A stretch of 64,000 nucleotides of DNA from Streptomyces cyaneogriseus subsp. noncyanogenus (lineage in GTDB: Bacteria > Actinomycetota > Actinomycetes > Streptomycetales > Streptomycetaceae). Shown one piece after another: positions 26,974-57,262 of this stretch (position 1 is the stretch's first letter; each line of letters starts with the position of its first letter). Below the pieces are notes generated by a model, which ran no database searches, was not told the DNA's origin, and was given only the letters and a program-made list of their open reading frames with translations. The DNA is taken from positions 3,906,001 to 3,970,000 of the forward strand of contig NZ_CP010849.1 in assembly GCF_000931445.1 (NCBI RefSeq), given 5' to 3'. The position numbers and the translations under genes were made by a program.

Positions 26974-26982
26974 TGTGGACAA
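26974..26982 (-). promoter_or_regulatory. Single DnaA box
   Basis: TGTGGACAA, the complement of the Streptomyces consensus TTGTCCACA, in the bkd2/lrp intergenic region. Significance as an isolated box is uncertain. Confidence 0.5.
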
Positions 26983-27040
26983 ACGGTTCTCCACACCCTG
27001 AGATGAACGCAGTACGTCCATGGCAGGAAGGCGGGAGGAC

Positions 27041-55745: not shown

Positions 55746-56000
55746 GTGCCGAAGTCACGTATCCGCAAGAAGGCCGACTACACGCCGCCGCCGGCGAAGC
55801 AGGCGACCGCCATCAAGATGAACAGCCGCGCCTGGGTCGCGCCGGTGATGCTGGCCATGTTCGTCATCGGGCTGGCCTGGATCGTCGTCTTCTACGTCAC
55901 CGACGGCTCGCTGCCCCTCGACAAGCTGGACAACTGGAACATCGTGGTCGGCTTCGGCTTCATCGCCGCCGGATTCGGTGTCTCCACGCAGTGGAAGTAG
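55746..56000 (+). CDS. crgA: Cell division/sporulation protein CrgA
   Basis: The 84-residue protein begins with GTG at 55746 after GGAGAGA. It has a basic N-terminus ([15 protein letters not shown]) and two transmembrane helices (about 32-51 and 63-80), the classical CrgA topology. CrgA coordinates FtsZ-ring assembly and septation in aerial hyphae and recruits FtsI-type PBPs in mycobacteria. It is divergent from DUF881 and followed by a region rich in DnaA boxes. Confidence 0.96.
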
Positions 56001-56035
56001 CGGCCGCTTCTTCGTGAACACAGCTCTGCCCACGG

Positions 56036-56249
56036 CTATCCACTGAGTTATCCACAGCCGTTGTCCACAGTGGGGAAAAAGAACGACGATCTGTGGATAA
56101 CTCATCGGGGATTGACGCCGGTGTGACGGAACGACTGGTAACCGAAAACATGTTCGCCCCCTGCCTGACCTGCGGAAACGCTGGCCAGTGACAGGGGGCA
56201 CACCTGTTCCCGCACCGTGTGCACAAGAATCGCCACACGCTGTGGACAA
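56036..56249. promoter_or_regulatory. Cluster of DnaA boxes
   Basis: Perfect boxes TTATCCACA (56048-56056), TTGTCCACA (56061-56069), TGTGGATAA (56092-56100) and TGTGGACAA (56241-56249), with a weaker CTATCCACT at 56036-56044. The outer two of the first group lie in a perfect 13-bp inverted repeat GAGTTATCCACAG (56045-56057) and CTGTGGATAACTC (56091-56103). The region between crgA and the rhomboid gene has no coding potential and is less GC-rich than its surroundings. Confidence 0.8.
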
Positions 56250-56257
56250 CGCGCCGC

Positions 56258-57172
56258 TCAGGTGAGCTGGCTCGTCCTCAACAGGGCCAGCACGATGATC
56301 GCGGCGAGGACCAGCGCACAGGTGCCGTACTGGACCAGCGTCCGCCGCTCACGCGGGGCGTGCACCATGGCGTACCCGATCACCACACCGGCGACCAGGC
56401 CGCCGATATGGGCCTGCCAGGCGATGTTGAACCCGGGGCTGAAGGTGAAGACCAGGTTGATCGCCAGCAGGACGACCACCGGGCGCATGTCCTGGTTGAG
56501 GCGCCGCATGAGGACGGCGGTCGCGCCGAACAGGCCGAAGATCGCGCCGGAGGCGCCGAGCGAGGGCTGGTTCGGGGCGGCGATCAGATACGACAGCGCG
56601 CTTCCGGCCAGCCCGGAGAGGAAGTAGAGCGCGAGGTAGCGGGCACGGCCGAGGGCCGCCTCGAGCGGGCCGCCGATCCACCACAGGCTGAGCATGTTGA
56701 ACAGCACGTGCAGGGTGCTGCCGTGCAGGAACATCGAGGTCAGCAGCCGGTACCACTGCCCCTCGGCCACGCCTTCGACGGAGCCCAGCAGGGGGACGTA
56801 CGCCTGCCCGAGGAGGGTGAAGCGGTCGGTGAAGCGGTCGCCTACGGCTTGCTGCGCCAGGAACAGGGCGAGGTTGACGCCGATCAGCGCCTTGCTGACC
56901 AGGCGCGGGTCGGCCGTGAGGGTGCCGCCGGCCAGCGTGCGGGGCCGCGACGCGTCCGGCGCGTGCCCCGTGCCCGAGCCGCTGCGGACGCAGTCGGGGC
57001 ACTGGAAGCCCACGGAGGCGTCGACCATGCACTCGGGGCATATCGGCCGCTCACAGCGGGTGCAGCGGACGCCGGTCTCGCGGTCCGGGTGGCGATAGCA
57101 GGTGGGCAGGGACCGGGCGTCCTTCGGACCGGTGTCCTCCGGGCCCCGCGGGCTGCCTGGCGCCTGATCCAT
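56258..57172 (-). CDS. Rhomboid family intramembrane serine protease with N-terminal zinc-binding domain
   Basis: The 304-residue protein has an N-terminal cysteine-rich domain (C25, C37, C40, C45, C48, C58, C61, B-box/ribbon-like) and a six-TM rhomboid core with catalytic S208 (GASGAIFG) and H255 (AWQAHIGG), plus HGSTLHVLFNM. It cleaves membrane helices of unknown proteins. Start ATG 57172 is chosen over an ATG 27 bp upstream because of GAGGGGAT before it. The order crgA-rhomboid-cyclophilin is conserved in actinobacteria. Confidence 0.93.
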   Translation of the reverse strand: MDQAPGSPRGPEDTGPKDARSLPTCYRHPDRETGVRCTRCERPICPECMVDASVGFQCPDCVRSGSGTGHAPDASRPRTLAGGTLTADPRLVSKALIGVNLALFLAQQAVGDRFTDRFTLLGQAYVPLLGSVEGVAEGQWYRLLTSMFLHGSTLHVLFNMLSLWWIGGPLEAALGRARYLALYFLSGLAGSALSYLIAAPNQPSLGASGAIFGLFGATAVLMRRLNQDMRPVVVLLAINLVFTFSPGFNIAWQAHIGGLVAGVVIGYAMVHAPRERRTLVQYGTCALVLAAIIVLALLRTSQLT

Positions 57173-57262
57173 GAGATCCCCTCGGTCGTCTGCGGGCAAT
57201 GCGCCGCCCCGCTCATCCTTACGGACGAGCGGGGCGTTTGGTTCCCCCTGGGGGACTGGGAC

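What the first reader, a model, noticed from the sequence alone, without database searches (positions are those of the whole stretch)
56036..56249. DnaA-box cluster outside oriC, between crgA and the rhomboid gene
Four perfect 9-mer boxes in about 200 bp, two of them arranged as a perfect 13-bp inverted repeat, in non-coding DNA. I recall that a DnaA-box cluster near oriC that titrates DnaA (called D78) was described in S. coelicolor; this may be its counterpart. Position next to crgA also suggests coupling of replication to septation control.
Basis: partly seen in the sequence, partly recalled or inferred. Interest (0 to 1): 0.6.

Follow-up and report, generated by a model that had tools for sequence, protein, structure and literature searches.

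The report
Ancient DnaA-binding site beside crgA
A tight cluster of binding sites for the replication-starter protein DnaA lies just behind the cell-division gene crgA near the replication origin, and a similar arrangement is found behind crgA in most sampled families of Actinobacteria, including the place where DnaA was found bound in mycobacteria, which points to an old control site for chromosome copying.

Summary
Four perfect TTRTCCACA boxes lie in 202 bp (56048-56249), the densest such cluster in this 7.76 Mb genome, between the converging ends of crgA and a rhomboid gene, 20.5 kb from oriC. The chance is about 1e-8.

It is probably not the D78 counterpart. By gene context the D78-like cluster is at serS/pheA, about 101 kb away, and a third lies upstream of dnaB. 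The crgA cluster fits "H69" of the same 2006 study; that match is recalled and the paper is not held.

The site is far older than Streptomyces. In crgA loci from 46 other actinomycete families, the 250 bp behind crgA hold 45 perfect boxes (69 loci) against 0.28 expected; 40 of 46 families have a box. Outside the class, 26 of 40 crgA loci have one. Spacing is fixed: 12-13 bp head-to-tail, 10 bp convergent. The orthologous mycobacterial gap, Rv0010c-Rv0011c, binds DnaA in vitro and in vivo (PMC7738170).

Best reading: an ancient origin-near DnaA sink or regulator. The mechanism is inferred.

The parts
55746..56000 (+). crgA, cell division protein CrgA; its 3' end borders the site
   Evidence: PF06781, E 3.5e-30
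56036..56044 (+). weak box CTATCCACT, two mismatches, 12 bp before box A
   Evidence: sequence; repeat family D1
56048..56056 (+). box A, TTATCCACA
   Evidence: a perfect TTATCCACA (+) kept in 80 of 80 Streptomyces loci
56061..56069 (+). box B, TTGTCCACA, 13 bp after A
   Evidence: often one mismatch in other Streptomyces, a 12/13-bp direct pair in 37 of 40 family loci
56071..56079 (-). box C', TTTTCCCCA, one mismatch, convergent with B at 10 bp; completes the class-wide A-13-B-10-C' triad
   Evidence: class geometry
56092..56100 (-). box C, TTATCCACA, 21 bp beyond C'; with A forms a 14-nt perfect inverted repeat
   Evidence: a perfect TTATCCACA (-) kept in 80 of 80 Streptomyces loci
56147..56208 (.). 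conserved hairpin between C and D, probably a terminator for the converging genes
   Evidence: arms; RNA fold of 56140-56215: -44.6 kcal/mol on -, z -6.7, and -34.7 on +, z -4.3; near-invariant arms; terminator role inferred
56218..56226 (-). weak box TTGTGCACA, one mismatch
56241..56249 (-). box D, TTGTCCACA, distal box 149 bp from C
   Evidence: perfect TTGTCCACA kept in 76 of 80 Streptomyces loci, C-D spacing 147-150 (66) or 159-161 (10)
56258..57199 (-). rhomboid family gene, converging with crgA
   Evidence: PF01694, E 1.2e-41

Best explanation
The site is a high-affinity DnaA platform close to oriC. Perfect 9-mers in a fixed geometry (head-to-tail at 12-13 bp, convergent at 10 bp; in this family a further convergent box and a distal box) hold DnaA outside the origin, whose own boxes are all imperfect here. 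Because the platform lies about 20 kb from oriC it is copied soon after each initiation; this doubles the strong sites, lowers free DnaA and delays a second start. Shown here: the boxes, their geometry, position and conservation. Shown by others for the mycobacterial ortholog: DnaA binding in vitro and in vivo. Inferred: DnaA binding at this very site, the sink action and its timing.
For: Four perfect boxes here, none in oriC, which has 12 one-mismatch boxes; TTGTCCACA is listed as the high-affinity box of S. coelicolor (PMC4285127, passage). Conservation behind crgA: 80 of 80 Streptomyces loci, 40 of 46 other families of the class, 26 of 40 loci outside the class. Genes converge, so no promoter. 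Loci that keep boxes tend to lie nearer dnaA: 15 genomes with boxes against 6 without, one-sided p 0.0017 (distances; test). The ortholog binds DnaA in M. tuberculosis IDAP-seq and M. smegmatis ChIP-seq (PMC7738170). A review states that S. coelicolor DnaA-box clusters repress untimely initiation (PMC5742627, passage).
Against: Pure titration does not need fixed spacing, yet the spacing is fixed. Six of 46 class families and 14 of 40 outside loci have no box in the first 250 bp. The distance test is small, not corrected for kinship, and has exceptions: boxes are kept at 84 and 93 kb (G531, G550) and missing at about 40 kb (G361, G507); G542 lacks boxes while another genome of its genus, G373, has them. 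The deletion phenotype that I recall from Streptomyces is of D78, not of this cluster. No binding data for this organism.
Confidence: 0.5

Rival explanations
1. A nucleotide-state switch: the fixed complex changes DnaA-ATP/ADP, like E. coli DARS (ADP release) or datA (ATP hydrolysis), perhaps through a head-to-head DnaA pair on the 10-bp palindrome.
For: Fixed triad geometry in 30 of 70 class loci of 21 families, none in the other 175,288 bp of these loci. DARS1 and DARS2 cores share the topology, one box opposed to two direct boxes 12 bp apart. A head-to-head DnaA domain I dimer is reported across Actinomycetes (PMC13270200, passages). Hicks et al. name titration and nucleotide exchange as options.
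Against: The convergent spacing is 10-12 bp, never the 14 bp of DARS. No enzymatic data. IHF or Fis dependence not testable here.
Confidence: 0.25
2. DnaA at the site controls transcription or termination of crgA (or rhomboid) and so couples replication to septation.
For: The boxes stay behind crgA over the phylum; in f39 (L253) a box is still there although DUF881, not rhomboid, follows crgA. Mycobacterial site mutants have longer cells (PMC7738170).
Against: The next recognised gene is a converging rhomboid in 45 of 76 loci (none recognised in 22), so there is no promoter to act on in these. [quoted passage not shown] In G214 (L175) the cluster lies 668-890 bp behind crgA, nearer rhomboid, and in G607 (L159) it lies behind rhomboid.
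Confidence: 0.1
3. The conserved object is an RNA or terminator hairpin, or a small gene, and the boxes are incidental.
For: The block 56040-56250 is conserved at 0.85 in 78 Streptomyces relatives and holds a very stable hairpin.
Against: No Rfam match (up to E 1 for 55990-56290). Beyond the nearer Streptomyces most BLAST matches cover only the A-B-C part, and across families boxes remain at the same place. C-D spacing changes by single bases, unlike coding DNA. The mycobacterial ortholog binds DnaA.
Confidence: 0.05

Closest known systems
S. coelicolor DnaA-box cluster H69 (Smulczyk-Krawczyszyn et al. 2006, PMC1595370; abstract recalled, paper not held)
   Same: Origin-near DnaA-box cluster; by recalled cosmid content it lies at crgA.
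   Different: Exact position and boxes could not be compared. The conservation beyond Streptomyces reported here was not seen in print in my searches (listed in the full report).
S. coelicolor D78
   Same: Strong boxes near oriC, outside it; the recalled deletion phenotype fits a DnaA sink.
   Different: Counterpart lies between serS and pheA with another box order (+13+, 25, -, then about 240 bp to two - boxes 30 bp apart).
M. tuberculosis / M. smegmatis DnaA site Rv0010c-Rv0011c (PMC7738170, passages)
   Same: Gap directly behind crgA; palindrome of two DnaA-box-like sequences; origin-near. In the mycobacterium-like genome G511 the gap holds boxes and has the order ppiA, PH-domain gene, crgA, DUF881.
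   Different: A co-directional PH-domain gene follows crgA there; fewer perfect boxes; no distal box D seen in the f4 loci read.
E. coli DARS1 and DARS2
   Same: Non-coding; one box opposed to two direct boxes that are 12 bp apart.
   Different: Convergent spacing 14 bp against 10 bp here; DARS lie far from oriC (17.5 and 64 min).
E. coli datA
   Same: Non-coding cluster with strong boxes outside oriC that lowers initiation.
   Different: Box order differs (+67+162+12-); needs IHF, not testable here.
High-density DnaA-box region near the E. coli origin (PMC12371093, passages)
   Same: Conserved excess of boxes near the origin, read as titration.
   Different: A regional density, not one small site of fixed geometry.

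Membership tests
Counterpart of S. coelicolor D78 | Gene context of cosmid D78 (serS/pheA; recalled) | tested here: not met
   This cluster is at crgA/rhomboid; serS/pheA carries another cluster in this genome and in 20 of 22 family genomes examined
Counterpart of S. coelicolor D78 | Highest DnaA affinity; deletion raises initiation (recalled) | not testable with these tools
   needs experiments
Counterpart of S. coelicolor H69 | Origin-near cluster at crgA (cosmid content recalled) | tested here: inconclusive
   Position at crgA, 20.5 kb from oriC; paper not held
Ortholog of the mycobacterial Rv0010c-Rv0011c DnaA site | DnaA boxes in the gap directly behind crgA | tested here: met
   the M. 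tuberculosis sequence itself was not fetched, G511 stands in for it
Ortholog of the mycobacterial Rv0010c-Rv0011c DnaA site | Palindrome of two box-like sequences | tested here: met
   B and C' converge at 10 bp; the same in class loci; palindrome stated in PMC7738170
Ortholog of the mycobacterial Rv0010c-Rv0011c DnaA site | DnaA binds in vivo | not testable with these tools
   shown for M. smegmatis, not for this organism
DARS | One box opposed to two direct boxes | tested here: met
   A, B against C'; DARS cores
DARS | Core spacing 12 and 14 bp | tested here: not met
   0 of 70 class loci have 12 plus 14; convergent distance is 10 (24 loci), 11 (6), 12 (4); here 13 and 10
DARS | Stimulates ADP release from DnaA | not testable with these tools
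   biochemistry needed
datA | IHF-dependent ATP hydrolysis by DnaA | not testable with these tools
   biochemistry needed; box order differs
oriC | Between dnaA and dnaN | tested here: not met
   oriC is 20.5 kb away beside dnaA

The most novel reading that the evidence does not exclude
A phylum-wide DnaA-regulating element of Actinobacteria, a third type beside datA and DARS: a head-to-head DnaA pair on the 10-bp palindrome, extended by a head-to-tail neighbour, sets the amount or the nucleotide state of DnaA, and it has stayed tied to the division gene crgA since before the classes of the phylum split. The Streptomyces cluster and the mycobacterial Rv0010c-Rv0011c site would be one element.
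Probability: 0.35. Interest if true: 0.85.

Novelty: new variant of a known kind. Interest (0 to 1): 0.62.

Why it matters
How Actinobacteria hold replication to one start per cycle is poorly known. A site of fixed geometry kept behind crgA over a phylum is a candidate for a general control. It joins two observations that I did not see joined in print: a Streptomyces cluster from 2006 (recalled) and a mycobacterial DnaA site under selection in clinical strains (PMC7738170). It lets the function of that site be studied in harmless Streptomyces.

Tried and rejected
D78 identity: rejected on gene context, with recalled cosmid content. Promoter role: rejected as main function, the genes converge and a sigma-70 scan found no site. 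Small protein: the frames in the gap are unlikely, C-D spacing changes by single bases. RNA family: no Rfam match in the gap. DARS membership: spacing not met. A search for three perfect boxes in 394 class genomes gave only 14 genomes in three genera: 5 Streptomyces, 8 of genus g50 and G607; of the g50 hits I read two, L165 and L171, which lie beside dnaA by eye. It was too strict, since one box is often degenerate. A helical-phasing law for convergent distances was considered and dropped: the family values 30-33, 42-45 and 54-55 fit 12-bp repeat units as well. In one search a rough finder missed or misplaced crgA in three loci (L196, L214, L221); one search repeated them with coordinates.

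Weak points. The 80 Streptomyces loci are the best 80 of 565 by crgA similarity, hence close relatives. Block conservation is not special at this locus: the gap between DUF881 and crgA is more conserved (0.95) than this block (0.85), and the short rhomboid-ppiA gap has 0.80. The 40 family loci L119-L158 were picked from DNA matches of the element, so they are biased. As a check I read 11 of the 29 family genomes without a DNA match; all 11 have at least two perfect boxes on the 3' side of crgA. Three Streptomyces genomes without a crgA match (G102, G168, G180) could not be examined. The 70 class loci were picked for family spread from crgA matches: 66 from the 217 non-Streptomyces genomes with crgA and 4 from the sample; several share a genus. 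The 40 outside loci are 40 of 100 outside-class genomes with a CrgA match; 170 of the 296 genomes of that sample had none. Nearness of crgA to dnaA outside the class was not checked. No shuffle control was made for the dnaB and pheA clusters.

Full report
What is there. The window is G000:C1:3906001-3970000 of a single-contig genome of 7.76 Mb; the named relatives found by its crgA are Streptomyces. Between crgA (+, PF06781) and a rhomboid gene (-, PF01694), which converge, lie four perfect TTRTCCACA boxes at 56048+ (A), 56061+ (B), 56092- (C) and 56241- (D). A and C sit in a 14-nt perfect inverted repeat. Weaker boxes lie at 56036+, 56071- (C') and 56218-. The genome has 43 perfect boxes against 16 for the reversed control, and no other 300 bp holds more than two. 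Four in 202 bp has a chance of about 1e-8.

Which known cluster. oriC is at G000 3982717-3983226, with 12 one-mismatch boxes and no perfect one, beside dnaA. Two more clusters lie on its other side: 4019946-4020208 between a MATE gene and dnaB, and 4063631-4063942 between serS and pheA. From memory, the 2006 study of S. coelicolor named three clusters near oriC, H69, H24 and D78, of which D78 bound DnaA best and was deleted; and cosmid H69 carries crgA, H24 the dnaB side, D78 pheA. On that basis the finding is H69, not D78. The paper is not held, and no held paper has DnaA box, D78 and Streptomyces together. A review says that S. [quoted passage not shown]

Conservation within the family. Of 80 Streptomyces loci, 80 keep A and C and 76 keep D. 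C-D spacing is 147-150 bp in 66 and 159-161 in 10. No perfect box occurs in 936 other 420-bp stretches of these loci. The block 56040-56250 is conserved at 0.85 in 78 relatives, third codon positions of crgA at 0.88 and of rhomboid at 0.74; but the gap on the other side of crgA has 0.95, so conservation of the block alone proves little. A DNA search found the element in 121 of 150 family genomes, 13 of 17 genera. In 40 loci picked from these matches, 40 have a convergent perfect pair at 30-33, 42-45 or 54-55 bp and 37 a 12/13-bp direct pair. Of the 29 genomes without a DNA match I read 11, including the four genera without any match; all 11 have at least two perfect boxes on the 3' side of crgA.

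Conservation beyond the family. I read 70 crgA loci from 46 other families of the class, picked for family spread from crgA matches. In the 250 bp behind crgA (69 loci long enough) there are 45 perfect boxes and 140 with at most one mismatch; shuffles give 0.28 and 4.5. Every other 250-bp bin holds 0 or 1 perfect box. 37 of the 69 loci have a perfect box. 40 of 46 families have at least one box with at most one mismatch, 34 at least two. The families without are f3, f43, f37, f25, f44 and f26; another f3 genome (G607) has a triad behind rhomboid. In 40 loci from other classes of the phylum, 26 have a box in 0-250 bp, with 17 perfect boxes against none in the upstream bins; 14 have none.

Geometry. 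In the class loci direct pairs are 12 (13 cases) or 13 bp (19) apart, convergent pairs mostly 10 (17) or 23 bp (12). A triad of these spacings, with at most three mismatches in all, occurs in 30 of 70 loci of 21 families (19 in the order A-B-C, 11 mirrored) and nowhere in the other 175,288 bp of the loci; with the third box at 12/13 bp the convergent distance is 10 in 24 loci, 11 in 6, 12 in 4 and never 14. In the window the same triad is A-13-B-10-C'. E. coli DARS1 and DARS2 both read +, 14, -, 12, -. The topology is shared, the spacing is not.

Gene context. The first recognised gene behind crgA is a converging rhomboid in 45 of 76 loci, a PH-domain gene in the crgA direction in 8, DUF881 in 1, and none was recognised in 22. 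In f4, which I take for the mycobacterial family because G511 has the order ppiA, PH-domain gene, crgA, DUF881 and a CrgA close to 2mmu (E 2.3e-41; that 2mmu is the M. tuberculosis protein is recalled), the PH-domain gene follows crgA.

Link to mycobacteria. Hicks et al. 2020 (PMC7738170; passages seen) found five DnaA regions in M. tuberculosis DNA in vitro and homologs of the same five in M. [quoted passage not shown] Rv0011c is crgA (recalled). [quoted passage not shown] they name titration and nucleotide exchange as options. The word crgA has 0 hits in the main text, Streptomyces 0 in the listing. So two of the three clusters here, crgA and dnaB, match two of their sites. Upstream of dnaB, 29 of 30 genomes looked at have a box and 24 a perfect one, with no perfect box elsewhere in these loci.

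Mechanism. The best-supported reading is a strong DnaA platform close to an origin of weak boxes. It fits the tendency to lose boxes where crgA lies further from dnaA (15 genomes with boxes, 6 without, one-sided p 0.0017), though the set is small, related, and has exceptions in both directions. The fixed spacing suggests a defined DnaA complex, and a head-to-head DnaA domain I dimer reported across Actinomycetes (PMC13270200, passages) could occupy the palindrome; that is inference. Whether the complex only holds DnaA or also changes its nucleotide state cannot be told from sequence.

Judgement. The local cluster is ordinary for Streptomyces and probably described in 2006. What appears new is its age, its geometry and its match with the mycobacterial site.

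Noticed in passing
L035:13631-13942 (G000:C1:4063631-4063942): Cluster between serS and pheA, likely D78 counterpart, with fixed box order; boxes present in 20 of 22 family genomes, absent at this place in the g2 and g5 genomes read.
   Followed up: partly
L033:9946-10208 (G000:C1:4019946-4020208): Cluster upstream of dnaB, likely H24 counterpart; boxes upstream of dnaB in 29 of 30 genomes, matching a mycobacterial DnaA site.
   Followed up: partly
window 56140-56215: Very stable hairpin between boxes C and D, stronger on the - strand (z -6.7), near-invariant in Streptomyces; probably a terminator for the converging genes.
   Followed up: partly
genome G498 (f19), eight places, for example C1:865040-865077: Eight or more pairs of TTGTCCACA exactly 29 bp apart on one strand, spread over the genome; a dispersed repeat that carries DnaA-box-like words.
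   Followed up: no
L178, L185, L187 (genome G290): Three crgA copies with the same score within about 20 kb; triplication or assembly artefact.
   Followed up: no
L159:1501-1629 (genome G607, family f3): Box triad behind rhomboid where crgA is not the neighbour.
   Followed up: no
window 26974-26995: A perfect TTGTCCACA (-) and TTCTCCACA (+) 13 bp apart, a small second box pair in the window.
   Followed up: no
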